This document shows, in pieces, positions 40,812-57,244 of a stretch of 64,000 nt of DNA (positions within the stretch are counted from its first letter, which is position 1; each line of letters starts with the position of its first letter). The notes beneath the pieces are model-generated. The model did not search any database and was not told the DNA's origin. It was given only the letters and a program-made list of their open reading frames with translations. Source of the stretch: Phyllobacterium chamaecytisi (GTDB lineage: Bacteria > Pseudomonadota > Alphaproteobacteria > Rhizobiales > Rhizobiaceae); contig NZ_JAIQWW010000013.1 of NCBI RefSeq assembly GCF_020164455.1, positions 1 through 64,000 on the forward strand, read 5' to 3'. A program made the position numbers and the translations under genes.

Positions 40812-40885
40812 TGGGGAATAGGTTAACGGTAGACCCACGGACTCTGACTCCGTTAGTCCTGGTTCGAATCCAGGTTCCCCAGCCA
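40812..40885 (+). tRNA. tRNA-Gln(CTG), integration site of the island
   Basis: 74 nt including encoded CCA. Acceptor TGGGGAA/TTCCCCA, anticodon stem ACGGA/TCCGT with loop CTCTGAC (anticodon CTG), T arm CCTGG-TTCGAAT-CCAGG, discriminator G. The 3' half from the anticodon loop onward is duplicated 16.4 kb to the right, marking it as the attachment site. Confidence 0.96.
40841..40882 (+). repeat. attL (3' half of tRNA-Gln)
   Basis: 38 bases from the anticodon loop to the start of the 3' acceptor strand are identical to 57203-57240; after one mismatch three further bases match. Confidence 0.9.
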
Positions 40886-41076
40886 AACTTTTCCATAGTG
40901 AAATCAATATCTTACCTCTACACCGCCATCAACGTTGGGTGGATTTCATGTTGCGTCATGTTGCAACTCGCTACCATTGATTTACAACGATTTTCTCGTG
41001 AGTACGGCAAATCCACGCGACATGGTTGACGTAATCTCGTTTGATCGGTTTGATGCGCTGATTGTGGGGGAACATA

Positions 41077-41295
41077 ATGGCACCAAAAAAGTTGAATTTG
41101 GACGAAGTCATCGCCTTGGCCAAATCGGGACGAATGGATGAGGCGAAGGCCGGGATGACGGTTCTTATCCAAGAAGCAAAATATTCCCCGACGAGAATTG
41201 TTGCAGGGAAGGATGGCATTGCCAAATTCTACAAGGGCAAAGCTCGCGTAGAAAAAGGCCCTGACGGAGTCTGGAGGCTCATGCAGAAGCCGTGA
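41077..41295 (+). CDS. Hypothetical 72-aa protein
   Basis: Begins MAPKKLNLDEVIALAKSGR; a helical N-terminus then a short basic beta-rich tail (AKFYKGKARVEKGPDGVW). The ATG after GGGGGAAC is preferred to an upstream TTG. First gene inside the island. No family recognised. Confidence 0.5.
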   Translation: MAPKKLNLDEVIALAKSGRMDEAKAGMTVLIQEAKYSPTRIVAGKDGIAKFYKGKARVEKGPDGVWRLMQKP

Positions 41296-41337
41296 TGCAG
41301 TTTGTAATCGCCTTTCCCCCTTCTTCGGAGTTCAGCA

Positions 41338-41838
41338 ATGATCAGCAATGCACCGGAAACCGTTGAACAGGCGGCGGAGCGCCGTCGCTTAGCTGAACGG
41401 GCTTTTGACTCTCGGTTACAGGACCGGAAAAACCTTAGCGATCAAGTATTGTCTTTTTCCAATGCTGGGATGAAGGCCCCTGCGCTGGCAGCGGTAGGCG
41501 GTGTAGCTGCCTTGCTTGGCTTTTACACCGCAAACTATGCGAAACTTTCACAAGACCCGGCCAATCTTCAGACGTTCAATTCCATTCTTTTTTGGCTGTT
41601 TCTTGCACTGCTCTTTACCGTTATGGCACCCGGCTTAGCGTATTTCGGCCAACTCGCCTATTCAGATGCGGTGGCCAACGAGGAGCACTCCTACGAGCGT
41701 CCATTTGTTCGAGATACCAAACGCTCAATATGGATGAATCGGATCGGCAATTTTTTCAGATGGTTTGCCACGTTTGTAACGTTGGCCGCGATTATTTGCC
41801 TCGCAATTGGAGGTTGGATGTTTCTTCGGCTGATCTGA
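41338..41838 (+). CDS. Hypothetical membrane protein, three TM helices
   Basis: 166 aa. A charged, helical N-terminal 45 residues (rich in R/E) precede hydrophobic segments at about 47-66, 86-107 and 143-163. No recognised family; similar small membrane proteins occur near phage integration ends. Followed within 20 bp by another small gene. Confidence 0.6.
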   Translation: MISNAPETVEQAAERRRLAERAFDSRLQDRKNLSDQVLSFSNAGMKAPALAAVGGVAALLGFYTANYAKLSQDPANLQTFNSILFWLFLALLFTVMAPGLAYFGQLAYSDAVANEEHSYERPFVRDTKRSIWMNRIGNFFRWFATFVTLAAIICLAIGGWMFLRLI

Positions 41839-41858
41839 AATCGAACTCGGAGGGGAAG

Positions 41859-42170
41859 TTGCCAATCGACTGGACGTCAACACTTCAAGAGCAAGCTGAG
41901 TTCGCAACACGTATAGCCGAAGACGTGGCTGCCACGCTTGAGCTTCCGCAACTCAATGATGTCCAGGTGCTGCGCCTTCACCGGGTAGTCGAGCAAGGCG
42001 CATCCACATTTGATCGCATCTTGGATGAAATGGATCAGCATGACGTGGACAACGATCTCATCGAAGCTGCAGATGGTATCGCCGATATATGGACGAGCTT
42101 GTCGATTTCCACCGCGAATAAGCTGCGCGCCTTGCAGGGCTTGGCCCCGATAGAGTTTCCGGAGTCATGA
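41859..42170 (+). CDS. Hypothetical 103-aa helical protein
   Basis: A TTG start preceded by CGGAGGGGAAG gives PIDWTSTLQEQAEFATRIAED..., an all-helical acidic protein. A longer frame overlapping the membrane-protein gene is a shadow. The stop overlaps the next start (ATGA), indicating coupled translation. Function unknown. Confidence 0.55.
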   Translation: MPIDWTSTLQEQAEFATRIAEDVAATLELPQLNDVQVLRLHRVVEQGASTFDRILDEMDQHDVDNDLIEAADGIADIWTSLSISTANKLRALQGLAPIEFPES

Positions 42171-42340
42171 CGAAGCCTCTTATTTGGTCAACCAGTCAGC
42201 TACGTGCTGCATCTAAGGTGGCAAAGGAACAGAACGTCGTCATCAAGCTCGGCCCAGACGGTAGTTTGTATATTTTGCCAGGCGATATAGAAGGTCATGG
42301 CCTCACGCCCATCGAAAGCAAGGGGAAGGGCTACCTTTGA
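42167..42340 (+). CDS. Hypothetical 57-aa protein
   Basis: Short gene reading MTKPLIWSTSQLRAASKVAK... VVIKLGPDGSLYILPG. ATGA overlap with the gene before and a TTGA overlap with the gene after make it part of a tightly coupled run. Resembles the small proteins that accompany excisionases in rhizobial integrative elements; the role is unknown. Confidence 0.6.
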   Translation: MTKPLIWSTSQLRAASKVAKEQNVVIKLGPDGSLYILPGDIEGHGLTPIESKGKGYL

Positions 42341-42543
42341 CGGACGGTCCCAATGATCTTGGCTTGATGACGCTTCAGGAAGCCTGCGATGAGATATTCC
42401 GTGGCCTGCTCACACCATCCTCCCTGCGCACCGAGGCAGCAAAGGGCAACCTTGAAATCATCCAGATCGCGCGAAAGGACTTCGTGACTAGGGAAGGCAT
42501 TCGCGAGATGATGGATAGATGCAAGCGGAGCTCGGGCAAATGA
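42337..42543 (+). CDS. Excisionase-like DNA-binding protein
   Basis: 68 aa from a TTG start that overlaps the previous stop. GLMTLQEACDEIFRGLLTPSSLRTEAAKGNLEIIQIARKDFVT is a winged-helix MerR/Xis-type pattern: one helix-turn-helix, then a beta wing ending in a DFVT-x2-I motif. Lies near attL, at the opposite end from the integrase. Likely recombination directionality factor or regulator; inferred from fold and place. Confidence 0.65.
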   Translation: MTDGPNDLGLMTLQEACDEIFRGLLTPSSLRTEAAKGNLEIIQIARKDFVTREGIREMMDRCKRSSGK

Positions 42544-42710
42544 CGAGCCGATTGAAGATATCTCAACGCCAGATCGAAGCAATCGCCAAAGGTGCCGCGA
42601 AAGCCGGATGCAGGGTTGAGATCACGATTGGAGAGGTTGTGGTGACCCTCATTCCCGAAAGCTCCTGCAAGCTTGCCGTACCGGCCCAGGAGGATGACTT
42701 CAGGCTGTGA
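42540..42710 (+). CDS. Hypothetical 56-aa protein
   Basis: MTSRLKISQRQIEAIAKGAAK then RVEITIGEVVVTLIPE: a helix followed by two strands. ATGA overlap with the excisionase-like gene. Small proteins of this look often sit directly before integrase genes in rhizobial islands; here no integrase follows. Confidence 0.6.
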   Translation: MTSRLKISQRQIEAIAKGAAKAGCRVEITIGEVVVTLIPESSCKLAVPAQEDDFRL

Positions 42711-42841
42711 GAGAACCTCTGTATCCGTGAAGTTGCAGCGCGCTGGATAGGATCTTTGATAAGGCTTTCTCGACGCCCCTAAGGTGATATTGACGGCGAT
42801 CTCGGGCTCTGCAATTTTGCAGGCGGGGAAGTGAGGAACTC

Positions 42842-43351
42842 ATGAAATTTCCGCCAGTCGATATCTATCGAGCTCCTTTCATCGGGCCGATCGGTCATTT
42901 AGCAATGCAGTCTGCGCATGCTGAAGATGAATTGATATCGCTATGCTCGCGTATCCCGTTTGACGGCTCCCCAGACCAACTGCCGCCTGGCGACACCGCC
43001 CACAAGCTACGCAATTGGAGTGGATCTACAATTCAGTTCATTGAGCAACGCTTATCATTGATTCCTGAGCTTCATTTGAGGAATCAGGCGCGCGATGCCG
43101 TCAGTCGATATGTAGAATTGCGAAACGCGCGGCACCGAGCCGTGCATGACGCTCTCGCTTTGGGAATATTGCAAGCCGACGATGGGTATATTACTCAAGC
43201 CTTGAGTGTAGAGTATAGACGCAACAAGCAAGCAACTTCTGTCTACCTGAACGTTGTCACACCTGAAGAAATCGCTGATCTAGCCTGTCAAATGTACGAC
43301 GTGCAGAAGGATTTAAACATGATCACATATGCCTTAAACCCTCCACAATGA
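42842..43351 (+). CDS. Hypothetical protein, possibly HEPN-like
   Basis: 169 aa, mostly helical. Contains VELRNARHRAVHDALALG, in which R-x4-H (RHRAVH) resembles the catalytic motif of HEPN ribonucleases, following an acidic helix (SAHAEDELISLCSRI). The match is short and the fold unproven. Coupled by ATGA to the membrane-anchored gene downstream, so the two may act together. Not a known phage structural gene. Confidence 0.55.
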   Translation: MKFPPVDIYRAPFIGPIGHLAMQSAHAEDELISLCSRIPFDGSPDQLPPGDTAHKLRNWSGSTIQFIEQRLSLIPELHLRNQARDAVSRYVELRNARHRAVHDALALGILQADDGYITQALSVEYRRNKQATSVYLNVVTPEEIADLACQMYDVQKDLNMITYALNPPQ

Positions 43352-44115
43352 TTGATCTGGCAAAGGAACTCAGTACGGCTCTAAACCCAGCCATCATCAT
43401 TGAAGTACCAAGCTCAGATACAGCTACGTTGGTAGCAGGATTTGGGGGTGTTCTGTTGGGAGGAGTGATATCTTGGCTGCTCGGCATCAATGTACAGCGG
43501 CATGCAAGGGCGCTGGCCGCCGCGGAGCGAACCGAGCTTGAAAAAACCACTACGATTCGCACGATGCTGAAGCTCCAGGAAATTACGAATGGTTACTACA
43601 CAAATCTTTTGTACATTCATAATTCGTTGCGCCAAGCGAATGCGGATCAGGAACTCCACCACCCACTTTGGCAATTAGTGAAGCCAGCGATTGGCGGTCC
43701 TTCAGTGCATCCTAAATTTGAAAGCAAGGATTTTGAGATGTTCATTCGCGCAGGGCGAGCCGATCTTATCGATCGCGCAACGATGCTTTCACTACGCTAT
43801 GAGTCGACTGCGCTGAGTTTTCAATTCTACAACGATCGAAGGAGCGCTTTGCAGGACGTGCTCGCCCCTCACTCTGTTGTCGATCCTTCGACTGGTATGG
43901 CCACAACAGTTATACTACCAGAACTTAGAGCGCTCTTTGGGATAAAATCTAAAGAGCTCGAGGATTTGATTCGAGAATGTTATAGGCTCGTCCGCATTGA
44001 TTTTCGCGATGCGGTTTCCCTTTGCAACGACATAAACACGGCCGCGAAGACCTACTTCAAAGATCCAAAGTTTTTCTCGCTTTGTGTTCCTGACGTGTCG
44101 ATTGCAACGGAATGA
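43348..44115 (+). CDS. Hypothetical membrane-anchored helical protein
   Basis: 255 aa. One transmembrane helix at about residues 27-48 (LVAGFGGVLLGGVISWLLG), a basic stretch (NVQRHARALAAAERTELEK) and a long helical cytoplasmic domain. No recognised family. Coupled to the preceding HEPN-like gene. Confidence 0.6.
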   Translation: MIDLAKELSTALNPAIIIEVPSSDTATLVAGFGGVLLGGVISWLLGINVQRHARALAAAERTELEKTTTIRTMLKLQEITNGYYTNLLYIHNSLRQANADQELHHPLWQLVKPAIGGPSVHPKFESKDFEMFIRAGRADLIDRATMLSLRYESTALSFQFYNDRRSALQDVLAPHSVVDPSTGMATTVILPELRALFGIKSKELEDLIRECYRLVRIDFRDAVSLCNDINTAAKTYFKDPKFFSLCVPDVSIATE

Positions 44116-44180
44116 TTGGTCGGGGCACTCAATTTAGCGATACTCTGCACTGAGAGCGTTCTCGATCGCTGGAGGAAATT

Positions 44181-44855
44181 ATGCCCGATGACAGAACTCA
44201 ACGAGGGCAGATATATGGAACCCATCCTGCCGACTATCTGGATAGAGCCAAGGAAAGACTTCAAGAGAGAACACCAGAGAGCCTCTTCTATGCGGCCCTT
44301 GAACTCAGGTTTTTTCTGGAATCTAGGCAGGACCTATATCTTAATGCCCAGAAAGCATACGCGAGATCAGTTCCGCGAGCCTGGAAAACGACCCATCAAT
44401 GGCTTGAACTGGAGCGGATATTTGGAAGTGACGAGATACAACATCTGCATTTCGAGTTCCATGAGGGAGGACAGTTCGATTTCTACTACACACCGGTCAC
44501 TCTTGAACTGCGCAAGGGCGCTGAAAAGCTCTCTGAATTTCTACACGCGCAGGCGTATCACGCGGCCTCGGATGTTTGGTGGAGCAACTTTCTGTCAAAG
44601 ATCTTGGATGTTTACCGTCGTGCCTGGATTTGTTCCCGGGGAAAACTATTCTATCCCGCGTTGATCTCCAAAGATGGAGCCATCGGCAAACTCGCGCTTG
44701 ATGCTAGGAACGGCCCGGAAGAATATGCTCCATTCTTCGTGCCCGACGCCGAAATAACCGTGAAAGTAGACTATCTGCGTGAACCTCCCTCCAGTTGGGA
44801 ATATCAGGAACCAGTGGGAGGCGATTTCGTAGGTTATTTGGATTCAGTGACCTAA
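44181..44855 (+). CDS. Hypothetical 224-aa protein
   Basis: N-terminal helical segment (ERTPESLFYAALELRFFLESRQ) followed by mixed alpha/beta sequence; WWSNFLSKILDVYRRAW and FVPDAEITVKVDYLRE are notable. Composition looks soluble and intracellular. A GGAGG-containing SD lies before the ATG. A terminator follows. Function not recognised. Confidence 0.6.
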   Translation: MPDDRTQRGQIYGTHPADYLDRAKERLQERTPESLFYAALELRFFLESRQDLYLNAQKAYARSVPRAWKTTHQWLELERIFGSDEIQHLHFEFHEGGQFDFYYTPVTLELRKGAEKLSEFLHAQAYHAASDVWWSNFLSKILDVYRRAWICSRGKLFYPALISKDGAIGKLALDARNGPEEYAPFFVPDAEITVKVDYLREPPSSWEYQEPVGGDFVGYLDSVT

Positions 44856-44873
44856 AGTTCGATTTGCCAAGCA

Positions 44874-44895
44874 GCCCCGCTGTGGGGCGTTTTCT
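44874..44895 (+). terminator. Intrinsic terminator after the first cargo block
   Basis: GCCCC-gctgt-GGGGC stem followed by GTTTTCT, 18 bp after the stop of the 224-aa gene. Confidence 0.65.
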
Positions 44896-45111
44896 CGTTA
44901 CGGCTGTCTGGCCACGCCGATTGTTTCCATCGCGCTAGGTGACTCGATATGGCCGGATTTAGGGCTATCCAGCCTGCTTGCTTTCTGGTCCGCAAATGCG
45001 GCCGGAAGACCAACATGAGCAGTATCCAATTTGAGAAGTTGGCATTGGACTTTCGGCCGTGTTTCTATCTCGGACAGGGACTCTTATGATGATTGCTTGG
45101 GGGGACGGGAT

Positions 45112-45912
45112 ATGAGGCTTATTACCTGCGCTGTGGGAATTACATTGTTGTTTGCGAATGTGTGCGAAACATCCGCGAAGGAGTGGTGGCACGACTCGTT
45201 TGTGTGGGAAGGCGGAACGTCGTGCGAGAGCAACGATTCAATCATGACTTTCACATCCACTGAAGCGAAAGGCTGGGAAACCTTCTGCAAAATAACCAAG
45301 CAGCAGAAAATCAAGGGCGTCGAGGCGGTCATTCTAGATCTGAGGTGCGGGGGCGATGACATGGACCCAGAAACAACGACATCTCAGGAGTTGTTAGTCC
45401 GCACAGAGGAAAAAATGACTATCTTCCCGTCGGGAAAGAGATACGAGCGATGCAGTAGTTTAAGGCCGGGGGCAAGTGAGTGCGCTATTGAAAAGCGAAC
45501 CTTTCGGTCAGATGAGCAATCGCCTGGCAGTTACCAAGTCCTTCAGTTCAAAGGCGGAGTTCTCGACGGAGAAGCTCTCCTCACAGGGTATAAGGACAAT
45601 GTGTTAGCCTGGACCGCCAGTGCTCGCGGTACATGCTCCAACGGCGCGGTGATCTGTCGGCTCGCGTTCGACACCATGAACTCAGGAGAAGTTTCCGATG
45701 CTTACCTCCCTATCGAAGTTGAGGGGAAGCAGTGGATTGTGTTGCCTACAATTCGGCAAAATGTTTACCAAACGGAGCGCTATTCTACCATGCACGGGAA
45801 GCCATACGGCGGGGTCGTAGCCAAATTGGCCAAAGATTTCAAACCCACTGATGACGAGCTCGTGCTGCCGCAAAACGTCTACAAGTACGCGGGCTGTGAT
45901 GAGACGCCATAA
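45112..45912 (+). CDS. Secreted hypothetical protein
   Basis: 266 aa with a signal peptide (RLITCAVGITLLFANVCETSA, cut near residue 22) and eight or so cysteines in the mature part, suggesting disulphides in the periplasm. The start ATG follows GGGGGGACGGGAT; an upstream frame without SD is rejected. No family recognised. The 256 bp before it contain a terminator and presumably its promoter. Confidence 0.6.
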   Translation: MRLITCAVGITLLFANVCETSAKEWWHDSFVWEGGTSCESNDSIMTFTSTEAKGWETFCKITKQQKIKGVEAVILDLRCGGDDMDPETTTSQELLVRTEEKMTIFPSGKRYERCSSLRPGASECAIEKRTFRSDEQSPGSYQVLQFKGGVLDGEALLTGYKDNVLAWTASARGTCSNGAVICRLAFDTMNSGEVSDAYLPIEVEGKQWIVLPTIRQNVYQTERYSTMHGKPYGGVVAKLAKDFKPTDDELVLPQNVYKYAGCDETP

Positions 45913-45972
45913 AAACCGTCTACGTTCGTCCGCGATAGACAGGCAGCATGCTGTCGAGCTTGCCCTTGGCCA

Positions 45973-46407
45973 CTACGCGGCCTCCTTTGCGAGGCGCATG
46001 CACAACCGCGCAGTTGCAGAAGATATCCCGGCTTCATTCTCCACCCATGGCCCGAAATGGCCACGTGGAAGCGATTTCTTGACCTGCAGAAGGTATTGGC
46101 CGATCTCGACCTTCTCCTCGTCAGTGCGGTGAATTCGAGGCCGGAAAGCGACTGTCCGGACATTGGCGTCGCGGGGCTGTTCAATCGGGTCGATATTGGC
46201 TGGTGACGTGAGCGCCATATAAGCCCGCTGCGTGGCTTCTTGCTGTTCGGGGGTCAATCCCCTGAACTGCTGATACGACAAGCCCAGTCCCATAGCCAGA
46301 GGCGCTATCCGCCGGTTGTGGCGCGGCATTCTGCTTAATCTTCGGGTTTGCCACATATTGGGAAGCCGGTATGTGCCGACGTCTTCAATCTCGATCTCAG
46401 TCAACAT
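45973..46407 (-). CDS. DUF3102-like protein
   Basis: 144 aa. The C-terminal part (EEKVEIGQYLLQVKKSLPRGHFGPWVENEAGISSATARLCMRLAKE) matches the DUF3102 pattern found in phage and plasmid proteins, where a helix-turn-helix-like module follows an LPRG-x-GPW motif. N-terminal half is not recognised. Stands alone on the minus strand between two rightward cargo blocks. Confidence 0.65.
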   Translation of the reverse strand: MLTEIEIEDVGTYRLPNMWQTRRLSRMPRHNRRIAPLAMGLGLSYQQFRGLTPEQQEATQRAYMALTSPANIDPIEQPRDANVRTVAFRPRIHRTDEEKVEIGQYLLQVKKSLPRGHFGPWVENEAGISSATARLCMRLAKEAA

Positions 46408-46553
46408 GGGAGCACCCTGGTTTGAGGATGGACACTAATAGCATCGGGAGGAACATTTGTTAAGCGTTGACTTAAGAGTTTCGCCGTATCAACAAGATCG
46501 GCGGGATTGACTCGCAGTGCAACCAGACTAATCTCGCAGTTCTGGGGGAAATT

Positions 46554-47477
46554 ATGCATATAAATCGAACACGAGTTCTAAATATTGATAACTACATTCG
46601 ACATATACCCGATGGGGCGCAAATTCGGGTAGTAGTCAACATCTCAGTAAACAGAGCAGAGAGTCTTCGACGAGCCGGCTTCGATGAGAACGCAGGGGAA
46701 GGACATTCCTTGCTTCCAAGAATATCGGGACGTATTTCAAAATATAATTCAGAGGGAAGGTGGCGGATAAGACGGGATCTGCCAAAGGAGATGAGATATA
46801 TACGGACGGTCTCTTGGAAGTGGAAGCAGTGGTCCGGCCGTGGGGATTATGAAGAACACGAAGAGATGCGAGACATCAGTCGATTGTGTTACCCCAAGGA
46901 ACTTATTCAACCTCCGGCGGTCGAACTCACAATTGCTGAGCGTGGTGGACAAACTTTCCTCGTTTCTCCGACGATGGCGAAAAATCCCGAAGCCACTGAT
47001 CACATCAAGCACGTAATCAATCTGTTCCTAGAGTTGTTTCGGGAATGTGAGCTCGTCGCAGACAACATGGAGGATTTCGACGTACCCGCCGTTGAGCGCG
47101 TCAACTGGCGATTGTTACCTCCTGGTCAGTATCCTTGGGAGGTTTTGCGCCCGCACATGGAGTTGGCGCTGCGGCGCACCTCTGAGGCTATGCAAAAGGT
47201 GATCAAGGATCGTCAAGACACCATTCGCGCTTACAATCCGGATCGGATCTATGTTGGCGCCGGAGGGTTTGGCGACTACCTAGCTTATGAGTTCGAAAGA
47301 TTTGGCAGCGTCGTGTTAGAAAGCGTACGCGTGGATAATGCCATCTATGCTTTCGGCCAAGATTGGCAGGCAGTTTCACAACTGTCAAAAGCCCAGGTCA
47401 TCAATGGCAACCACCATCAAGCGCGGATTGTGCACTCAGATGGATGGAAGGATCGACTAGCGCATTTCCTCCAATAA
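46554..47477 (+). CDS. Hypothetical 307-aa protein, first gene of a three-gene cargo operon
   Basis: Alpha/beta sequence with DGAQIRVVVNISVNRAESL near the start and a conserved-looking C-terminus (NPDRIYVGAGGFGDYLAYEFERFG). No signal peptide or transmembrane helix. No family recognised. Followed after 16 bp by a 63-aa gene and then an HEPN gene, so the operon could be a host-defence or toxin unit; this rests on the neighbour. Confidence 0.6.
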   Translation: MHINRTRVLNIDNYIRHIPDGAQIRVVVNISVNRAESLRRAGFDENAGEGHSLLPRISGRISKYNSEGRWRIRRDLPKEMRYIRTVSWKWKQWSGRGDYEEHEEMRDISRLCYPKELIQPPAVELTIAERGGQTFLVSPTMAKNPEATDHIKHVINLFLELFRECELVADNMEDFDVPAVERVNWRLLPPGQYPWEVLRPHMELALRRTSEAMQKVIKDRQDTIRAYNPDRIYVGAGGFGDYLAYEFERFGSVVLESVRVDNAIYAFGQDWQAVSQLSKAQVINGNHHQARIVHSDGWKDRLAHFLQ

Positions 47478-47493
47478 GGAGTCCAATGACACA

Positions 47494-47685: not shown

Positions 47686-47690
47686 GGTGC

Positions 47691-48647: not shown

Positions 48648-48651
48648 CGTT

Positions 48652-50449: not shown

Positions 50450-51276
50450 TTGGATTCCTTTCCGTCTCGACCGGCTTTAACTGCCAAGGTCCAGGCTTTA
50501 GACTTGCCGGGCTGTTCGCGGGTGGTGTCGTTAGCGTGCCACATGCTGCCGTCGTAGGTGACTAAGGCGCCGCGGGTGTATTCCTGCGCTGCCTGCCACA
50601 CACCGTGGTATCGAACGCCACCGGCTTCGAGCTCGTCGATCCGCTTCACCAACTTATCGATCGTCGCGTCTCTCTGCTTGAAAGCTCGCTGGATAGCCTC
50701 GGATTGACCAGCGGAATGCACCATCAGGTATCGGATGGAGGGCGCTCGCTTCAGTTGCTCCTCAGTGAAGCTGATTGCCTCGAGCTCGTCCTTTACCCGT
50801 TTCTCAACGGCCGTCAGCCATTCCTTGGTTTCAAGCTCCTCAGCAGTTTTGAACTTCCTGCCTTTCGTGAGGTCGACTGACATATCGATCGTGGCTGGTA
50901 TCGCGACCGGTGGTGGTGGCGGTGTTCCCACGAGAACTGTCCAACCTTTACCCAAGCGCGGGTCACCCGTTGGAAAGTCCCTTGTGGCCTGCCAGATAAC
51001 GCCTGAAGAGATTACCAGCGCGCCCTTGCGATAACCCTCGTCACGATCGTTATATGCTGGCAAGGGAGACTGACCAGCGATTAGCCGGCCACGAACCTCA
51101 CGTAAGACCACAATGTCATTCCGGAGCAACTTCGCCGCGTCGGTATGTGCTGAAGAATCCCAATGCTCATATTCCAGTCGATCGGCCTCGGTCTCAAGGC
51201 GCTTGATCTCCCCATTGACGAGCTTATCGGTCAGGCCGGTCGGATAGTGTTTGGTCAGAAAATCCTTTAGGCTCAC
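50446..51276 (-). CDS. Phage protein with two carbohydrate-binding-type repeats
   Basis: 276 aa. Two ChtBD3/CBM5-12-like motifs: YRKGALVISSGVIWQATRDFPTGDPRLGKGW near residue 90-120 and YTRGALVTYDGSMWHANDTTREQPG near the C-terminus, each with a G-x-x-W pair. Between them a PPPPP hinge and a coiled-coil segment. Resembles phage head- or tail-fibre proteins that bind surface glycans. The GTG start has GAGGTG upstream and overlaps the ClpP-like stop (GTGA). Confidence 0.65.
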   Translation of the reverse strand: MSLKDFLTKHYPTGLTDKLVNGEIKRLETEADRLEYEHWDSSAHTDAAKLLRNDIVVLREVRGRLIAGQSPLPAYNDRDEGYRKGALVISSGVIWQATRDFPTGDPRLGKGWTVLVGTPPPPPVAIPATIDMSVDLTKGRKFKTAEELETKEWLTAVEKRVKDELEAISFTEEQLKRAPSIRYLMVHSAGQSEAIQRAFKQRDATIDKLVKRIDELEAGGVRYHGVWQAAQEYTRGALVTYDGSMWHANDTTREQPGKSKAWTLAVKAGRDGKESK

Positions 51277-51875
51277 GATTGCACCTCGTGGACAAATCCG
51301 TTTGCCAAACACCAGGCCAGTGTTGAGGGCTGCTCAGTCTCGCTTTCTCGCTGTATGATAGCGACGTCACAGCCTGTTCTCTGGCTGGTGATCGTGTTGA
51401 AGTCGTCGTCGATCGAGCGTAGTTCGGCTGCCTTCTCCTCAATATCTTTCGCAGTCCATCGGACGCTGCCCTTGTGAAGTTCATACGATGTGGGGTGAAG
51501 CAGAATGTTGGTGTCCGCCTGGGCAATTCGTAGATCGGCAGCCAGAGCGATCAGTACCGCGGCGCTTTCGCAGCGAGACTGCAAGAGTGCTACCTTGATG
51601 GGCGCTGGGTGTCTGCGAAGCAGGATGTACAGGTCAATGGATGGAGCGCATTCACCTCCGTCGGAATTGATCATCAGGGTGAGATAATGAGCGCAGGGTG
51701 CGGCATCGATCTGCTGTTTCAGCCGATCATACATTTCGCGGTTGATATAACCGTCGACGACAATCTCGAGGTGATCCGGACCGCTACGATATATGGCTGC
51801 TCGATCTAACGCCTCGGCCGTTTCTTCGGCGGTCGGCTCCAGCGTGCCATTATGGGATAGGAGTTCAAGAAACAT
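51273..51875 (-). CDS. ClpP-like serine protease (S14, phage type)
   Basis: 200 aa in the ClpP/crotonase fold: LTLMINSDGGECAPSIDLYILLRRH, catalytic-region Ser in CESAAVLIALAAD and His in NILLHPTSYE. Phage members often act as prohead proteases, but no capsid gene is present here. ATG overlaps the next stop (ATGA); a TTG three codons upstream is possible. The catalytic Asp is not obvious. Confidence 0.75.
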   Translation of the reverse strand: MFLELLSHNGTLEPTAEETAEALDRAAIYRSGPDHLEIVVDGYINREMYDRLKQQIDAAPCAHYLTLMINSDGGECAPSIDLYILLRRHPAPIKVALLQSRCESAAVLIALAADLRIAQADTNILLHPTSYELHKGSVRWTAKDIEEKAAELRSIDDDFNTITSQRTGCDVAIIQRESETEQPSTLAWCLANGFVHEVQS

Positions 51876-52405
51876 CAGAGCCAACCCCGCACCAGTTTGA
51901 TCAGCGGGGACAGGTAGGCCTTCTGCATCTGCGAGCTTGTGGCGATAACGGGACTGCGCAACGATATGTGGGCCCGGGTTGCCTGTTCGCTCAAAGCTGC
52001 GCCGGCGGAAATCAATTCGTCGAGCTCGGCCGCCTTTTGCGCGATTGCTTCGACATATGCTGCTATGTGGTCCCTGAGCGCCGATCGGGTTGCTTCTGAG
52101 TATTCCCTATGCACAGTGTCAAAGGCTGCCCTCGCGGATGTCTCGGCTCCCACGACCTGGAGAAGTTCATCTTGGATAGCGGTGATCTGTTCCGGAGTTA
52201 CCGTAGCGATTCTGCGCTTCAGGGTAGCGTCAACGCTCGCCTGAAGCTTTGCATCCTCGAAACGCTTGGCCATCTGTACCCGTGCACCGGTGGCAACGGT
52301 ATAAGATTCCTCGGCTGCTATAAGCTCTGCACTCTGCGGTGGAAGCTGTAGAACGGCCCGAAAGTGAGCCGTTTCATTCTGTTTTTGGCTTACCTTTGCC
52401 AGCAT
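51875..52405 (-). CDS. Hypothetical coiled-coil phage protein
   Basis: 176 aa, almost entirely helical with heptad-like stretches (ARAAFDTVHREYSEATRSALRDHIAAYVEAIAQKAAELDELI). The ATG at 52405 is used; an ATG at 52429 also exists. Overlaps both neighbours, so it is in the phage operon. Function unknown. Confidence 0.55.
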   Translation of the reverse strand: MLAKVSQKQNETAHFRAVLQLPPQSAELIAAEESYTVATGARVQMAKRFEDAKLQASVDATLKRRIATVTPEQITAIQDELLQVVGAETSARAAFDTVHREYSEATRSALRDHIAAYVEAIAQKAAELDELISAGAALSEQATRAHISLRSPVIATSSQMQKAYLSPLIKLVRGWL

Positions 52406-52706
52406 TGACCGAGTCCCGATTGATCTCATGATTGGAATTTAGCAGGTCGGGATTCGAGAAAAGGTCACGCGTGACGCTGCGAAAATGGTTGTAGACATAA
52501 CGGTGCAAAGCCTGGTCAAGTTTTTCTGGATTTCCGTCATCCCACTCGGCCAACTCTCCAATCTCAACCAATCCGTCGCGGATCATCTCGCGGGGCAAGC
52601 GAAGCCTGAATATGTCGACGCCGGCGCGCTTTCGAGCACGCTGGTCGCGTTGACGCTGCGCAGCCGTTTTCGCCGGTCGTGTGTGGTCAAGCTTCCGAGA
52701 CGACAT
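52374..52706 (-). CDS. Hypothetical basic phage protein
   Basis: 110 aa. Begins with a basic segment (KTAAQRQRDQRARKRAGVDIFRLRLPRE) common in small phage and plasmid proteins that may bind DNA as ribbon-helix-helix-type regulators. SD GGGAGG is 6 nt from the ATG. Function unknown. Confidence 0.6.
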   Translation of the reverse strand: MSSRKLDHTRPAKTAAQRQRDQRARKRAGVDIFRLRLPREMIRDGLVEIGELAEWDDGNPEKLDQALHRYVYNHFRSVTRDLFSNPDLLNSNHEINRDSVNAGKGKPKTE

Positions 52707-52817: not shown

Positions 52818-53102
52818 TCATGCGGCACCGTCCGTCCCGCGGTAATGCTGGCAAATATTGATTTCTCTGGAAACAGCATCCCCAAATGCAGCAATCTCTC
52901 TTTCGATCATCTGGGTATCGAGTCCCGATGCATGCATTTCTTTCCAAAGCCGACTTACAAGGCGTGTCCAATGCGCCTTGCCCTGCGAGTAGCTTTTGGT
53001 ATTGAGAGCTTCCGCCGCATCGCCGACAAGTTTGCGTCTGCGATCAAGCGGGAAGGCGTGTATCGTTGCTGGCTTGCGATACGTGAAAAGATCAAGCTGC
53101 AT
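52818..53102 (-). CDS. DUF6074 phage protein
   Basis: 94 aa from the ATG with GGAGG at 5 nt: MQLDLFTYRKPATIHAFPL, then GKAHWTRLVSRLWKEMHASGLDTQMIEREIAAFGDAVS. This is the DUF6074 pattern of small rhizobial prophage proteins found after replication genes. The longer upstream frame (reading MVTPVVP repeatedly) is an out-of-frame read of the iteron repeats. Role unknown. Confidence 0.7.
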   Translation of the reverse strand: MQLDLFTYRKPATIHAFPLDRRRKLVGDAAEALNTKSYSQGKAHWTRLVSRLWKEMHASGLDTQMIEREIAAFGDAVSREINICQHYRGTDGAA

Positions 53103-53706
53103 CATCGCCTCCACCTTCATAGGTATCTTCAAGGGTGAAGGGACAACTGGTGTCACCATGAATTGGACAACTGGTGTCACCATGATCGTTTGCGACGACC
53201 AGTAATTCATAGGGACAACTGGTGTCACCATGAATAGTCCCAGGAACCCACGTTTCGAGAGGTAGATCTTTGGGTATCGCCAGTCGGATCAGTCTAGACC
53301 GAACGAGTTTTCCATTGCGGGATCGCCGCCATCCTCGCTCGGGAATGAATAGACCAAGAGCGCAAAGTGCTGCCATGTCCCGCTTGATAGTGCGCTCCGA
53401 GCATCTGCCGGCGCGCATGGCTATGGTCTCGTTGGTCGCCCAGAAAGTTCCCGTGTTCCAATGAATAAAACGGTCAACAACGGCCATGACTCGGAAACTC
53501 AGACCGGCTTGGTTGCATACCTGCATTGCTACTGCGTGCCATGCTTCGAATGCCTCTTTTCGAGCTTTGGTTTCCTTGGGCCAGCTCAGAGGCAGACAGG
53601 GTTTCGCGACAAGGGAAGTTTCCTTTGGCGAACTTACTTTCTCTGACAAAGGAACGAATACCCGCTGGGCAGCTTCGTTGAGCGTTTTGGTGGGGTAAGC
53701 CTTCAT
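53092..53706 (-). CDS. Phage replication protein with winged HTH and in-gene iterons
   Basis: 204 aa. A central winged-helix region (VVDRFIHWNTGTFWATNETIAMRAGRCSERTIKRDMAALCALGLF) is that of phage/plasmid HTH replication initiators. The C-terminal region contains HGDTSCP three times, encoded by near-identical 21-bp DNA repeats on a 24-bp grid. Both neighbours overlap it, so it is in the phage operon. The layout recalls lambda O, whose origin lies inside the gene. Confidence 0.65.
   Translation of the reverse strand: MKAYPTKTLNEAAQRVFVPLSEKVSSPKETSLVAKPCLPLSWPKETKARKEAFEAWHAVAMQVCNQAGLSFRVMAVVDRFIHWNTGTFWATNETIAMRAGRCSERTIKRDMAALCALGLFIPERGWRRSRNGKLVRSRLIRLAIPKDLPLETWVPGTIHGDTSCPYELLVVANDHGDTSCPIHGDTSCPFTLEDTYEGGGDDAA
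53139..53231. repeat. Three in-gene iterons, candidate replication origin
   Basis: ACAACTGGTGTCACCAT and flanking bases recur as identical 21-bp units at 53139, 53163 and 53211, spaced 24 and 48 bp (a 24-bp grid with one degenerate slot). Each unit contains the dyad TGGTG-T-CACCA. They lie within the replication gene, as iterons do in lambdoid origins. Confidence 0.6.
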
Positions 53707-53983: not shown

Positions 53984-54195
53984 GGCTTGGCCTCCTGTCG
54001 TTGGATTTTTTCCAGCAGATCATGAGTTTGATAGCTCAATTCCTGCACATGCCGAAGTGTCGACGTGAGGTGTCCGCTAAGGGTTGAGTTGTTCCCGCTC
54101 TGATCCTCCATGTACTGAGACGCGGCTCGGCAAACGCCTACCAGGGCAAGGATCGTGTAGGAGCGATCAATATCTGTATCGGTGACGCTGATCAT
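53980..54195 (-). CDS. Hypothetical 71-aa phage protein
   Basis: Helical protein (ISVTDTDIDRSYTILALVGVCRAASQYM... LRHVQELSYQTHDLLEKIQRQ). ATGA overlap with the Tat-signal gene upstream. No family recognised. Confidence 0.55.
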   Translation of the reverse strand: MISVTDTDIDRSYTILALVGVCRAASQYMEDQSGNNSTLSGHLTSTLRHVQELSYQTHDLLEKIQRQEAKP

Positions 54196-54659
54196 GACTG
54201 CACCGCCTTTGGATCGTAATTGTACGCCGTCAGCAAGAAGCGATTCCGCAATTCTGGCCTGGAAGGGTATCTGTAGCCATCATCCCACCGCTTAATTGTC
54301 GGATCTATTTCTTGCATGGCCTGCTTCACACCTTCGATGTGGAACTTGAGCCGAGCCTGCGGATCAGTCTCCGTAGCTAATACAAACCTTAATTCTGGAT
54401 CGACATGCCAATAGTAGTGACCTGGATTGGCACGTTTCATCGACTTACAGATCTTCTTGATGTGATAGGCCGCAACGTCGATAGGATCCGCCGTTTCCAG
54501 CCATTCTTCGGTATTGAACGCCGGTGCGGACGTAGCAGCTATGGCAACGGCCGGAATTGACAGAGCCGCTGCGGCAACAGGAGCGCTGGCAAGAAACCAG
54601 CGGCGGTTCATGGCGGTTGCCCCTTTGGCGGCAACCGTGGTATTAGCTGTCTCGTTCAT
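54192..54659 (-). CDS. Tat-signal phage protein
   Basis: 155 aa. MNRRWFLASAP followed by a hydrophobic stretch and AIA forms a twin-arginine-type signal starting at residue 17. The mature part (EEWLETADPIDVAAYHIKKICKSMKR, HYYWHVDPELRFVL) is a small globular domain. Rhizobial prophages often carry such a gene near their regulatory region. GGGAGGA lies before the chosen ATG. A start at 54743, overlapping the HTH gene stop, would add 28 residues. Confidence 0.65.
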   Translation of the reverse strand: MNETANTTVAAKGATAMNRRWFLASAPVAAAALSIPAVAIAATSAPAFNTEEWLETADPIDVAAYHIKKICKSMKRANPGHYYWHVDPELRFVLATETDPQARLKFHIEGVKQAMQEIDPTIKRWDDGYRYPSRPELRNRFLLTAYNYDPKAVQS

Positions 54660-54739
54660 TGAATTTTCCTCCCACGGAATGTTTGAGAACCATGGCTCGG
54701 CAGGATGGCAGTCCTGGCCGGGCCTTCTGCTTGTCTGGA

Positions 54740-54928
54740 TCATGCTGCATCCTCCATGAAAAAGCGGATCAGTTTGCCGCGTTCTGCGACCCAACGATTG
54801 CCGATCTGCTTGGCTGGCAGCAGCCCGTTTGAGAGCATGTAGTGCGTTTGGCGCACCGTCCGGCCGATGATCTTCGCGATGGCCGATAAGCCCCAAACTA
54901 ATTCCATATCGTCGTTATTTTCGTTCAT
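54740..54928 (-). CDS. Small HTH DNA-binding protein
   Basis: 62 aa: LVWGLSAIAKIIGRTVRQTHYMLSNGLLPAKQIGNRWVAER is the MerR/AlpA-like winged HTH of phage regulators and excisionases (a Trp-Val wing after GN-R). First gene of the leftward phage operon, divergent from the Arc-type gene. Likely early regulator. Confidence 0.75.
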   Translation of the reverse strand: MNENNDDMELVWGLSAIAKIIGRTVRQTHYMLSNGLLPAKQIGNRWVAERGKLIRFFMEDAA

Positions 54929-54962
54929 CAGGTTGTCTCCGTGTTAACCAACGATATTAGTT

Positions 54963-55012
54963 ATATCCATTGGACATCATTGACGCAAGCTGAAAAAATG
55001 TCCATTGGACAT
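54963..55012. promoter_or_regulatory. Paired palindromic operators in the divergent phage promoter
   Basis: ATGTCCATTGGACAT (54998-55012, perfect 7+1+7 dyad) and ATATCCATTGGACAT (54963-54977, one base different) are 35 bp apart centre to centre. They lie between the leftward HTH operon and the rightward Arc/integrase operon, consistent with a genetic switch. Confidence 0.75.
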
Positions 55013-55035
55013 GATGATGATCGGAGTGACATCAT

Positions 55036-55500
55036 ATGGCTGAGAACAGAAGCAAGTCTGATGGTTTCATGCTCCGGTTTCCACCGGGGCTACGTGATCG
55101 CGTGAAGTCCGACGCCGATGGACGTGGCAGATCAATGAATGCAGAGATCGTATGGCGCATTGAAAAATTCGAAGAAGCACAGCGGGCTTGGGTGAATACA
55201 GACGCCGAAATGTCTAAACTTGAAAGGGCCGTTGGCGATAGCCAGGCAGAGGTAGAGAGGCTCTACGAGGAACGTGCCGGGCTCTTTGAGGCAGTCAATA
55301 ATCAAGAACGTAGCTTACAGAGCCTGCGAGAGTCACATCGGACATTGGCGATCACTGTCAAGTCTCTCGGGGAAGCCTTGCTGACTGACAGCCAAATATC
55401 CGATTTCGTTAGGGTGCTGGCTGAAGGCTTAACTCAGATTGAAATAGACTTATCGTCTGACGCGTCGGAACCTGTACCCAAGGAGGCCTGGGAACGCTAA
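55036..55500 (+). CDS. Arc-family DNA-binding protein
   Basis: 154 aa. Residues 1-50 are an Arc/MetJ ribbon-helix-helix (SDGFMLRFPPGLRDRVKSDADGRGRSMNAEIVWRIE). A coiled coil of about 80 residues follows. Sits immediately before the integrase, the stop and start sharing one base (TAATG). Probably an element repressor acting on the paired palindromes. Confidence 0.85.
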   Translation: MAENRSKSDGFMLRFPPGLRDRVKSDADGRGRSMNAEIVWRIEKFEEAQRAWVNTDAEMSKLERAVGDSQAEVERLYEERAGLFEAVNNQERSLQSLRESHRTLAITVKSLGEALLTDSQISDFVRVLAEGLTQIEIDLSSDASEPVPKEAWER

Positions 55501-56699
55501 TGTCAATCCGCAAGCGTACATGGACAACTGCCAAGGGTGAGGAAAAGACCGCCTGGGTGGTGGATTATCTCGACATCAAGGGCATTCGCCGGCTGAAGAC
55601 GTTCAAACTCAAGAAGCTTGCTGATGAATTCTCATCCATTGCCAAGGTAGAGGTTCGGGAAGGCGTCCACGTTGCCGACAGTGCTACTGTAACGGTTGCC
55701 GAGGCCGGCGCTTTATGGCTAGCCAAATGCGATTCGGCCGGGTTAGAGCGGTCCACGGTCGATCAATACCGGCAGCACCTTAATCTTCATATCAAACCCA
55801 TGATCGGCGCCGTCAAACTCTCCAAGATAACCGTACCGGCAGTGAGAGCTCTTCAGGACGAGTTGCGAGAAAACGATCGATCTTCGGCTATGATCAAGCG
55901 CGTGACTGTCAGTCTCGGCAGTATACTTTCCGATGCACAAGAGCGTGGGCTCGTTGTTCGCAATGCGGTGCATGAGATGTCCAAACGCCGCGGCAATGGC
56001 GCCAGCAAGGCAGAGAAGCGCCAGAAAGCTCGTTTGCGGTATGGAGTAGATATTCCAACCATGCCGGAGATACGCGCGATCCTTGAGGCTGCTGGAGGCA
56101 GGTACCGCCCTTTCCTAGTGACTGCGATATTCACTGGCATGCGCGCATCAGAACTGCGTGGTTTGTCATGGGCTGACGTCGATCTCGGGAAGGGTGTCAT
56201 ACATGTTCGTCAACGTGCCGACGCCTATCATACGATCGGGATGCCAAAGTCTGATGCCGGACAGAGAACGATACCGCTCACACCGATGGTCGTAAATACA
56301 CTCAAGGAGTGGAAGCTTGCCTGTCCCAAGGGTGACTTGAGGCTTGTGTTCCCGAATGGCGAGGGAAACATTGAGTGGCATCAGAACATCATCAAGCGAG
56401 GACTATGGCCGACGCTGATACAAGCAGGCGTGACCGTGGAACACATTGGGGCGGATGGCCAAGCCAAAGTTTCTGCAAAGTACACCGGCCTTCACGCGCT
56501 GCGGCATTGGTTCGCATCATGGTGCATCAACAGTAAGGCGGACGGGGGACTCGAGCTATCACCTAAGGCTGTGCAAGCCCGCATGGGCCACTCTAGCATT
56601 CAAGTGACGTACGATACCTATGGGCATTTATTTCCGGCATTGGATGAAGCTGAATCGTTACGTGCAGCTGAGCTGGCACTGTTGGGGACATCCTCATGA
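55500..56699 (+). CDS. Tyrosine recombinase/integrase of the island
   Basis: 399 aa. N-terminal Arm-type and core-binding regions (about 1-165), then the catalytic domain. The active-site residues are clear: Arg in FTGMRASELRGL, His-x-x-Arg in LHALRHWFAS, His in MGHSSIQVTYDTY with the nucleophilic Tyr following (YGHLFP). Lies 500 bp from attR and points toward it. Coupled to the Arc-type regulator upstream and the membrane protein downstream. Confidence 0.93.
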   Translation: MSIRKRTWTTAKGEEKTAWVVDYLDIKGIRRLKTFKLKKLADEFSSIAKVEVREGVHVADSATVTVAEAGALWLAKCDSAGLERSTVDQYRQHLNLHIKPMIGAVKLSKITVPAVRALQDELRENDRSSAMIKRVTVSLGSILSDAQERGLVVRNAVHEMSKRRGNGASKAEKRQKARLRYGVDIPTMPEIRAILEAAGGRYRPFLVTAIFTGMRASELRGLSWADVDLGKGVIHVRQRADAYHTIGMPKSDAGQRTIPLTPMVVNTLKEWKLACPKGDLRLVFPNGEGNIEWHQNIIKRGLWPTLIQAGVTVEHIGADGQAKVSAKYTGLHALRHWFASWCINSKADGGLELSPKAVQARMGHSSIQVTYDTYGHLFPALDEAESLRAAELALLGTSS

Positions 56700-57154
56700 C
56701 TGGCCGCATTAATTGGAGGCGTGGACTATTTCGGTTCTGGTTGGTGGGAACACTTTTTTGGATCGTACTTGTCATGCTCTTCTATTGGTCCTCGATAAGC
56801 TCCCCATATGTTTCGCCACATGCTTTTATCGAGGGCCAGGGAGATGTCGCATGGACTTATTCCTCCGATCAGGCGCGAACTGCGAGGGACGCAAAAGCCA
56901 ACGGTACGTTAGTCGAAATTGAAGTGGAGGGTGCACCCGGTATTACATATTTTGCACCTAAAGAAAGCAACTACACGCAGGCAATTGAGCGGTTGGCGCC
57001 TATTATGTTGGGGTTTTATAGTGTCGAACAATCGTCGAACCGCGTCCAAGAACTTTGGGAGGCTGCCGGGGCCGCGCTGATACCTCCCAGCATCCTACTC
57101 GTGGTAGGTTTTCTATTCATGTGGGCATTGAGCGGCTTCCGTAATGCAACATAG
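56696..57154 (+). CDS. Hypothetical membrane protein at the right end of the island
   Basis: 152 aa. Transmembrane helices near residues 12-34 and 124-146 flank a periplasmic or cytoplasmic loop of about 90 residues (YVSPHAFIEGQGDVAWTYSSDQARTARDAK). ATGA overlap with the integrase. No family recognised; may be cargo or a superinfection-type function. Confidence 0.6.
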   Translation: MTGRINWRRGLFRFWLVGTLFWIVLVMLFYWSSISSPYVSPHAFIEGQGDVAWTYSSDQARTARDAKANGTLVEIEVEGAPGITYFAPKESNYTQAIERLAPIMLGFYSVEQSSNRVQELWEAAGAALIPPSILLVVGFLFMWALSGFRNAT

Positions 57155-57202
57155 GCGCGACATGATGATGAAAATGCCAACAAATACAATGCCAGATTAA
57201 AC

Positions 57203-57244
57203 ACTCTGACTCCGTTAGTCCTGGTTCGAATCCAGGTTCCTCAG
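57203..57244 (+). repeat. attR (tRNA-Gln 3' fragment)
   Basis: Direct repeat of attL: 38 identical bases, one C-to-T change, then CAG. Not a complete tRNA: the 5' half is absent. Confidence 0.9.

What the first reader, a model, noticed from the sequence alone, without database searches (positions are those of the whole stretch)
40841..57244. 16.4-kb tRNA-Gln island that looks like a phage satellite rather than a full prophage
The element keeps integrase, excisionase-like gene, switch operators, replication gene with iterons, HNH nuclease and terminase small subunit, but has no large terminase, portal, capsid or tape-measure gene. The terminase small subunit is followed directly by tail-accessory-type genes. 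Small size, own replication module and a small terminase without the large one resemble PICI-like satellites that redirect a helper phage's packaging. A decayed prophage is the plain alternative. Gene families are established knowledge; the satellite reading is inference.
Basis: partly seen in the sequence, partly recalled or inferred. Interest (0 to 1): 0.8.

Follow-up and report, generated by a model that had tools for sequence, protein, structure and literature searches.

The report
Rhizobial tRNA-Gln phage satellite-like island
A 16.4-kb mobile island in a rhizobial chromosome most likely spreads by borrowing another virus's particles; it is one of many small islands in this bacterial family that carry differing handfuls of virus-particle genes.

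Summary
The observation mostly holds. A 16.4-kb island (attL 40841-40885, attR 57203-57247, 43/45 identical) sits in tRNA-Gln(CTG), with integrase, Arc-type regulator, paired operators, O-like replication gene with iterons, ClpP-like head-maturation-type protease, packaging-type HNH and a probable (remote) small terminase; TerL, portal and capsid were not detected. Two same-genus genomes show the empty site. "Tail-accessory genes after TerS" was not confirmed.

The satellite reading is supported, not proven. Integrase kin occur in 68 of 394 family genomes (own included). Of 34 att-bounded elements, 23 are 9.9-18.1 kb: 6 carry TerL+portal+capsid, 3 TerL without detected portal/capsid, 14 no TerL; 10 of the 14 carry varying subsets (capsid, tape measure, protease, TerS, HNH). 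Window-type TerS recurs in three other genomes with no TerL found nearby; one copy lies in a 9.5-kb element inside a prophage portal gene. The window's genome holds a second, 11.4-kb island with its own capsid gene.

Against: TerS is remote, no helper is identified, int points outward, TerL-less elements are scattered on the integrase tree, 6 of 10 larger elements also lack detected TerL, nothing shows mobilisation. It is not a canonical PICI, cfPICI, P4 or PICMI.

The parts
40812..40885 (+). tRNA-Gln(ctg), integration site, intact on the attL side
   Evidence: ARAGORN
40841..40885 (+). attL, 45 bp
   Evidence: direct repeat, 43/45 with attR; empty site in G018 and G009
41068..48647 (.). left-arm cargo: mostly plus-strand genes of unknown function, including a 255-aa protein shared with two other elements, a DUF3102 protein (45973-46407 minus) shared with L007, and a 318-aa protein with weak HEPN-like hits (47691-48647)
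   Evidence: only weak or unknown-function hits
48652..49020 (-). 122-aa gene downstream of TerS; homologue in TerS-bearing element L008 (46%)
   Evidence: phrog_6034 6e-16, unknown function
49121..49708 (-). probable small terminase subunit (TerS)
   Evidence: phrog_83 1e-3; hhalign 5e-5 to TerS of two sister elements over 47 columns; relatives in three other genomes and a partial one in L120; fold model inconclusive
49803..50228 (-). HNH endonuclease of packaging type, adjacent to TerS
   Evidence: phrog_589 1e-26, phrog_4581 3e-24; PDB 5h0m 8e-9
50168..50449 (-). 93-aa protein, unknown
   Evidence: no family hit
50446..51312 (-). 288-aa protein whose C-terminal 54 residues match a CBM-like module found at portal C-termini and behind portal genes
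   Evidence: phrog_1289 2.6e-15, PF02839 1.4e-5 (below its cut-off); phage portal genes; 55% match over 47 residues next to the capsid gene of the second island
51273..51884 (-). ClpP-like head-maturation-type protease; the Ser and His that I recall as catalytic in ClpP are aligned
   Evidence: PF00574 7.5e-12, phrog_94 3e-11, NF045542 3e-11 below its cut-off, alignment
51875..52429 (-). 184-aa protein, found only in the own genome among 149
52374..52706 (-). 110-aa protein, unknown
52818..53231 (-). DUF6074 protein
   Evidence: PF19551 5.6e-21
53092..53706 (-). replication initiator, O-like, with internal iterons
   Evidence: phrog_391 5e-5
53139..53235 (.). three 25-nt direct repeats (putative origin iterons)
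54192..54725 (-). protein with a Tat-like N-terminus (by eye), homologues in related elements
   Evidence: no family hit
54740..54928 (-). 62-aa HTH, excisionase/AlpA-like by position; travels with the integrase
   Evidence: no family hit; present in 20 of 22 IMG/VR loci
54963..55015 (.). paired palindromic operators, 35 bp apart
55036..55500 (+). Arc-type ribbon-helix-helix regulator
   Evidence: PF03869 2e-9
55500..56699 (+). tyrosine integrase, pointing outward to attR
   Evidence: PF00589 2.7e-16
56696..57154 (+). 152-aa protein of unknown function
   Evidence: no Pfam or PHROG hit
57203..57247 (+). attR, 45 bp

Best explanation
The island is an integrated, helper-dependent phage satellite of a Rhizobiaceae lineage. 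Shown from sequence: it is a discrete tRNA-Gln element with its own integrase, regulatory switch and replication gene, lacking detectable TerL, portal and capsid genes, and it shares its integration/switch module with many other small tRNA islands that carry different subsets of virion genes. Inferred: when a helper tailed phage enters its lytic cycle, the Arc/operator switch is relieved, the integrase (with the HTH protein as directionality factor) excises the island, the O-like initiator replicates it from the internal iterons, and its TerS plus HNH work with the helper's TerL so that satellite DNA is cut and packaged into helper-made heads. The ClpP-like protease and the portal/CBM-like protein would modify head maturation or the particle surface.
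For: Precise att repeats and empty site in two same-genus genomes. Packaging-specificity genes without the motor. One PHROG labelled terminase small subunit (phrog_4581) contains this HNH region. Window-type TerS recurs in 3 other of 394 genomes, with no TerL found near it: L007 (10.9-kb island at the same tRNA-Gln with its own capsid protein); L006, a 9.5-kb element with capsid-like protein, HNH and TerS interrupting a prophage portal gene; L008, with a tape measure, in a genome without PF03354, portal or PF05065 hits, though it has a phrog_2 TerL 0.7 Mb away. A partial TerS relative in Hansschlegelia (L120) shares an element whose integrase abuts a terL 3' fragment and a portal gene, as if inserted in terL. 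Integrase kin in 68 of 394 genomes, own included; 34 att-bounded elements sized including the window, 23 of them 9.9-18.1 kb. 14 of those 23 lack TerL, and 10 of the 14 carry one or a few virion or packaging genes in varying combinations. The own genome holds a second 11.4-kb island with primase and capsid but no TerL or portal hit.
Against: TerS is a remote match and its predicted fold found no significant neighbour. No complete helper prophage identified in the draft genome; the portal, one capsid and one TerL hit lie together and look like a GTA cluster. Integrase points outward, as PMC10111431 states for prophages against PICIs. On the quick integrase tree the TerL-less label needs 16 changes, at least 11 forced, so repeated loss is possible. 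Six of the 10 elements of 20.7-37.3 kb also show no TerL, so my TerL searches may miss some types or those are other islands. Of 22 IMG/VR loci with this integrase, 8 show a TerL and 6 more a portal and capsid in the roughly 10 kb seen: many kin carry head modules. No pac/cos site, excision, induction or particle evidence. 7.6 kb of cargo is unexplained.
Confidence: 0.68

Rival explanations
1. A decayed or deletion-derived prophage: an ancestor with the same integrase lost its structural genes and the remaining late genes are relics.
For: Larger elements with the same integrase clade exist (10 of 34 bounded elements are 20.7-37.3 kb), and many IMG/VR kin carry head genes; TerL-less elements are scattered on the integrase tree; integrase outward as in prophages; a 3.3-kb remnant of the family exists at tRNA-Gln (L039).
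Against: The late genes are uninterrupted ORFs; no remnant of PF03354, portal or PF05065 capsid in six frames; the nearest full-head element by integrase (L041) shares only int, Arc, HTH and a 75-aa gene at protein level, plus an HNH at profile level (2e-9), and has a different TerS class; no relative with the same late-gene order in what was searched (the last seeing about 10 kb beside the integrase); element sizes under 20 kb fall into two groups (gap 2.4 kb, P 0.019 against a uniform spread).
Confidence: 0.2
2. A genomic island that moves by its integrase and occasional generalised transduction or conjugation; the phage-like genes are passengers or anti-phage interference genes, not a packaging system.
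For: The same tRNA-Gln holds islands that look non-phage by eye in the genus (G002 13.2 kb, G014 18.1 kb); about half of the window island is unknown cargo, with only a weak PADLOC hit (8.5e-4); four small family members show none of my 13 virion profiles.
Against: Presence of an O-like replication gene, TerS+HNH, protease and regulatory switch; TerS and HNH kept together in an otherwise different element (L006).
Confidence: 0.12

Closest known systems
Gram-negative PICIs, including helper-embedded PICIs (PMC10111431, PMC6092414)
   Same: Small, integrase plus small HTH regulator, replication zone, then a variable late zone with captured phage late genes; TerS in some; a TerS relative of the window lies in an element embedded in a prophage late gene (portal).
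   Different: No AlpA or HTH_17 profile hit, no primase or Bro hit in the genes scanned, integrase points outward, tRNA-Gln site, Arc-type regulator; the HE-PICI paper found its elements only in Enterobacterales.
Capsid-forming PICIs (cfPICI; described in PMC11389934)
   Same: Sister elements with this integrase (L041, L042, L045, L051, L056, L107; 15.5-18.1 kb) carry TerS, HNH, TerL, portal, protease and capsid.
   Different: The window island has no detected capsid, portal or TerL; five of those six sisters also carry a tape-measure gene. That cfPICIs carry HNH, portal and terminase is recalled.
SaPIs with TerS or with a capsid homologue (SaPIbov5 Ccm; PMC8569155 start of abstract only, PMC6092414 passages)
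   Same: A single packaging or capsid gene redirects the helper; precedent for capsid-only or TerS-only islands.
   Different: No sequence relation was tested or claimed.
AH14b satellite of phage AH14a in Pseudomonas (PMC4936722, start of abstract and passages)
   Same: 16.8-kb satellite-like prophage without structural genes, packed in the capsid of a 55-kb helper.
   Different: Other host; no sequence comparison made here.
P4-like, PLE, PICMI, tycheposons/VEIMEs
   Same: General lifestyle (recalled in part): own integrase and replication, helper-made particles.
   Different: No primase hit (P4, PICMI), no fis site (PICMI); PLE, tycheposon and VEIME gene content was not compared.

Membership tests
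Phage satellite (general) | Discrete small integrated element with own integrase and att sites | tested here: met
   16.4 kb
Phage satellite (general) | Lacks a complete virion gene set | tested here: met
   no TerL, portal or capsid hit in the island
Phage satellite (general) | Encodes a function that redirects helper packaging or assembly | tested here: inconclusive
   TerS weak, HNH strong, ClpP-like protease strong; function not shown
Phage satellite (general) | Helper-dependent induction and packaging in particles | not testable with these tools
   needs induction or infection experiments
Gram-negative PICI | AlpA / HTH_17 regulator | tested here: not met
   62-aa HTH matches no Pfam, PHROG or NCBIfam model; a divergent form is not excluded
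Gram-negative PICI | Integrase pointing inward (PMC10111431) | tested here: not met
   int 55500-56699 + points to attR at 57203
Gram-negative PICI | Primase/SSB/DUF5906 replication zone | tested here: not met
   O-like initiator instead, no primase hit
cfPICI | Own capsid, portal and terminase genes | tested here: not met
P4-like | P4-type primase/helicase | tested here: not met
   no primase hit
P4-like | Capsid-size factors Sid and Psu | not tested
   not searched by name
PICMI | int, alpA and primase next to fis (PMC10803314 passages) | tested here: not met
   tRNA-Gln site; no primase or AlpA hit
PLE, tycheposon, VEIME | Family gene sets | not tested
   no comparison made
Prophage (intact) | TerL, portal, capsid and tail genes | tested here: not met

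The most novel reading that the evidence does not exclude
A large, so far unnamed group of rhizobial satellites shares one integrase/HTH/Arc module and swaps its late zone: each island carries one or a few virion parts (capsid only, capsid+HNH, TerS+HNH+protease, protease+tape measure, tape measure only, or a whole head), so different islands attack different steps of their helpers, including tail length. Their sizes fall at about 10-13 and 15.5-18 kb, as if set by two small-head classes, and two such islands in one cell (here TerS/HNH/protease on one, capsid on the other) could complement each other.
Probability: 0.3. Interest if true: 0.82.

Novelty: new variant of a known kind. Interest (0 to 1): 0.6.

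Why it matters
Among the rows listed by my literature searches (an open-access library, long hit lists seen only in part) I saw no paper describing phage satellites of rhizobia. If the reading is right, a common class of tRNA island in nitrogen-fixing and plant-associated bacteria would be recognised as satellites, which would explain how much of their island cargo moves. The repeated occurrence of single virion genes, especially lone capsid and lone tape-measure genes, makes testable which helper step each island hijacks.

Tried and rejected
Simple deletion derivative: looked for the same late-gene order in relatives and found none, so it was lowered but not excluded.

'Tail-accessory genes after TerS': rejected; the next gene is of unknown function.

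TerS by fold: the model has pLDDT 68 and no match under E 0.1 in PDB or BFVD; among the 50 of 140 BFVD rows listed, the only TerS-named one was rank 45 (TM 0.38/0.44). A PDB profile search was also negative. Left inconclusive.

Resident helper in the own genome: PF03354 none; portal, one capsid and one phrog_2 TerL lie together on contig C1 and look like a GTA cluster; a second weaker phrog_2 hit (C1:491312) was not followed up; the weak capsid hit on C7 proved to be a second island. In the G425 prophage around the embedded element no TerL was found either, so that host prophage may be incomplete or of another type.

TerS scans of IMG/VR gave no relative, nor did the protease scan. tblastn of phage records with rep and TerS gave none; the 288-aa protein matched 13 records by its C-terminal module only. 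The genome-contig scan with TerS returned the L007 genome (Ferirhizobium litorale) and a partial match in Hansschlegelia plantiphila, L120. On checking, L120 has a terL 3' fragment (profile 451-513 of 536) and a portal gene just past its integrase, 8.5 kb from TerS: it is the one TerS relative with TerL sequence in the same locus. I read it as an element inserted near the end of terL, but its TerS side is cut by the contig end. Two further TerL hits of that genome: one, L156, belongs to another HNH-TerL-portal cluster; the other was not examined.

'TerL-less elements are one lineage': rejected by the quick integrase tree (the careful search did not finish). Alignment A2 mixed unrelated proteins and was dropped.

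Paired operators upstream of the Arc gene: score 21 or more in 7 of 20 Arc-bearing elements, absent or at shuffle level in the other 13, so not a universal trait.

Gene calling in relatives was a simple longest-ORF method and placed some spurious opposite-strand ORFs; the survey counts rest on six-frame profile searches instead. The profiles were seeded from these same elements, so other capsid, portal or tape-measure families may be missed. PF04860 and PF05065 were not run on the seven genomes of L107, L108, L110, L112, L114, L117 and L118. The 23 unbounded relatives (15 of 41; 8 of 15) were left out of size counts; 20 kb further upstream was fetched for only 20 loci. Not all integrase matches were fetched.


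Full report
What is there. The window holds a 16.4-kb island in tRNA-Gln(ctg). A 45-bp repeat at 40841-40885 and 57203-57247, 43 of 45 identical, bounds it. The tRNA is whole on the attL side. A search of 20 genomes of the genus (own included) with the two flanks joined gave one continuous match in G018 (94% of 558 nt) and G009 (90%), so the empty site exists. In other genomes the flanks are split by other insertions, for example about 13.2 kb in G002, 18.2 kb in G013 and 18.1 kb in G014. The tRNA-Gln is therefore an integration hotspot.

Genes. The right arm has an outward-pointing tyrosine integrase preceded by an Arc-type regulator. A 62-aa HTH gene diverges from it. Between them lie two near-identical palindromes 35 bp apart. 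The leftward operon then has a replication protein resembling lambda O (phrog_391, 5e-5) with three 25-nt repeats inside its 3' end, a DUF6074 protein, two unknown proteins, a ClpP-like protease of the head-maturation kind, a 288-aa protein ending in a module seen at phage portal C-termini, a 93-aa unknown, an HNH nuclease and a probable small terminase. The HNH belongs with packaging nucleases: one matching PHROG is labelled terminase small subunit and contains the HNH region near its N-terminus, and the nearest solved structure is a 130-aa HNH endonuclease, 5h0m (that it comes from phage GVE2 is recalled). The TerS call is weak: phrog_83 at 1e-3, a profile-profile hit of 5e-5 over 47 columns to TerS proteins of two sister elements, and position beside the HNH. 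A fold model did not settle it. The left arm is about 7.6 kb of unknown cargo.

What is missing. Whole-genome six-frame searches found no TerL (PF03354, phrog_2), portal (PF04860) or HK97-type capsid (PF05065) in the island.

The family. The integrase has close relatives (E <= 1e-60) in 68 of 394 genomes of the family, own included. I fetched 55 integrase loci besides the window and L007 (40). Att repeats of 44-70 bp at tRNA 3' ends were found for 16 of 41 loci directly (L007 included), 10 of 20 after extension and 7 of 15 more: 34 bounded elements with the window, in tRNA-Gln, Met, Arg, Phe, Thr, Cys, His and Lys. One is a 3.3-kb remnant, 23 are 9.86-18.13 kb, 10 are 20.7-37.3 kb. The 23 fall into 10 (9.86-13.1 kb) and 13 (15.5-18.1 kb); a gap this wide has P 0.019 under a uniform spread. 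That is suggestive only, because sampling was limited.

Content of the 23: six carry TerL, portal, protease and capsid (L041, L042, L045, L051, L056, L107), and five of these also a tape measure. Three carry a TerL but no portal or capsid that my profiles see (L059, L073, L112; L059 also has a tape measure). Fourteen have no TerL by phrog_2 in a genome-wide search. Of those fourteen: window (TerS, HNH, ClpP), L007 (capsid, TerS), L044 (capsid, protease, HNH), L057 (HNH), L058 (tape measure), L069 (capsid, protease), L072 (capsid, tape measure, HNH), L075 (tape measure, protease, fibre), L077 (fused protease-capsid), L117 (tape measure, protease); L108, L110, L114 and L118 show none of my 13 profiles. 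Of the ten larger elements, four show a TerL (L047, L049, L070, L074) and six do not (L043, L052, L055, L061, L064, L068). Among 22 IMG/VR loci with the integrase (about 10 kb seen beside it), 8 show a TerL, 6 more a portal and capsid, one only a weak tape measure, and 7 none of the profiles; some of these may be the same elements as in the genomes. On a quick integrase tree the TerL-less state needs 16 changes, at least 11 forced by well-supported branches, about as many as for shuffled labels (mean 17.4; 143 of 500 as low). So late zones are exchanged, or lost, independently of the integrase. This can be read for modular satellites and also for repeated loss.

TerS relatives. Window-type TerS was found in 3 other genomes among 394. 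L007, from Ferirhizobium litorale, is a 10.9-kb island in the same tRNA-Gln with 66%-identical integrase and its own capsid protein. L006 is a 9.5-kb element with integrase, capsid-like protein, HNH and TerS inserted inside the portal gene of a prophage that has its own capsid gene (portal profile positions 33-320, with one stop codon, and 2-50 lie on either side; 14-bp repeat with 12 identical). L008 is an element with a different integrase, TerS, a primosomal protein, a tape measure and a tail-fibre-like gene, in a genome without PF03354, portal or PF05065 hits but with a phrog_2 TerL 0.7 Mb away. In these three no TerL was found near TerS. A fourth, partial relative (L120, Hansschlegelia plantiphila, contig-truncated) has a terL 3' fragment and a portal gene directly past its integrase, which I read as another element set into a prophage late gene, here terL; this is inference. 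Keeping TerS apart from TerL in different backbones is the strongest sequence argument that it serves to capture someone else's TerL.

The same cell. The window's genome has a second island of this general kind: contig C7, 11.4 kb, tRNA-Thr(ggt), 50-bp att repeats, another integrase, a primase, a capsid protein (phrog_617 5e-31) and a CBM module 55% identical over 47 residues to the window's, without TerL or portal hit. Portal, capsid and one TerL hit elsewhere sit together and look like a gene transfer agent (my reading). I found no complete helper prophage in this draft genome.

Comparison with known kinds. The HE-PICI paper (PMC10111431; abstract, outline, gene-content section and passages read) describes four zones in gram-negative PICIs, a dynamic late zone with captured helper genes, inward integrase and AlpA/HTH_17, and reports helper-embedded elements only in Enterobacterales. 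The window shares the late-gene capture idea and has an embedded relative in Rhizobiaceae, but its integrase points outward and no AlpA, primase or Bro hit was found in the genes scanned. PMC6092414 (passages) states that some PICIs carry a TerS homologue. PMC8569155 (start of abstract in a listing) reports a capsid homologue in SaPIbov5. PMC4936722 (start of abstract and passages) reports a 16.8-kb satellite of a 55-kb phage. PMC11389934 and PMC10803314 (passages) list satellite families; the 'soil bacteria' family named in PMC11389934 is a Streptomyces system. I therefore call it a satellite-like island of a rhizobial group that I did not see described, not a PICI.

Verdict. Nothing here shows mobilisation.

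Noticed in passing
G000 contig C7, L099:242-11643: Second satellite-like island in the window's own genome: 11.4 kb in tRNA-Thr(ggt), with integrase, primase, topoisomerase-like gene, capsid protein and CBM module, no TerL or portal hit.
   Followed up: partly
L006 (G425:C1 about 2940359-2949920): A 9.5-kb element with capsid-like gene, HNH and TerS interrupts the portal gene of a prophage: looks like a helper-embedded satellite outside Enterobacterales.
   Followed up: partly
L120:88-10543 (Hansschlegelia plantiphila): Partial TerS relative in a contig-truncated element whose integrase abuts a terL 3' fragment and a portal gene: perhaps a second late-gene-embedded element.
   Followed up: partly
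L058 (G426), element 6803-18604: 11.8-kb tRNA-Arg island carrying a tape-measure gene and a primase, in a one-contig genome with no PF03354, phrog_2, portal or PF05065 hit.
   Followed up: partly
L041, L042, L045, L051, L107: 16.8-18.1-kb islands with a whole head module plus a tape-measure gene; capsid-forming satellites or minimal phages.
   Followed up: partly
window 54963-55015 and upstream of Arc genes in L041, L043, L049, L061, L064, L072: Paired palindromes 23-36 bp apart (34-36 in five of seven elements) upstream of the Arc gene; the sequences differ between elements, as expected of immunity specificities.
   Followed up: partly
L149 (G002), L151 (G014), L150 (G013): Other islands in the same tRNA-Gln of the genus: by eye an ABC/iron-transport island, an arsenic-type island, and an 18-kb head-gene element without a hit to the window's integrase.
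   Followed up: no
window 54192-54725: Protein with a Tat-like N-terminus in the early region, with homologues in L007, L039 and L123; unusual for a phage-type early operon.
   Followed up: no
G000 contig C1 about 176657-183230: TerL, portal and capsid hits in one cluster, probably a gene transfer agent.
   Followed up: no
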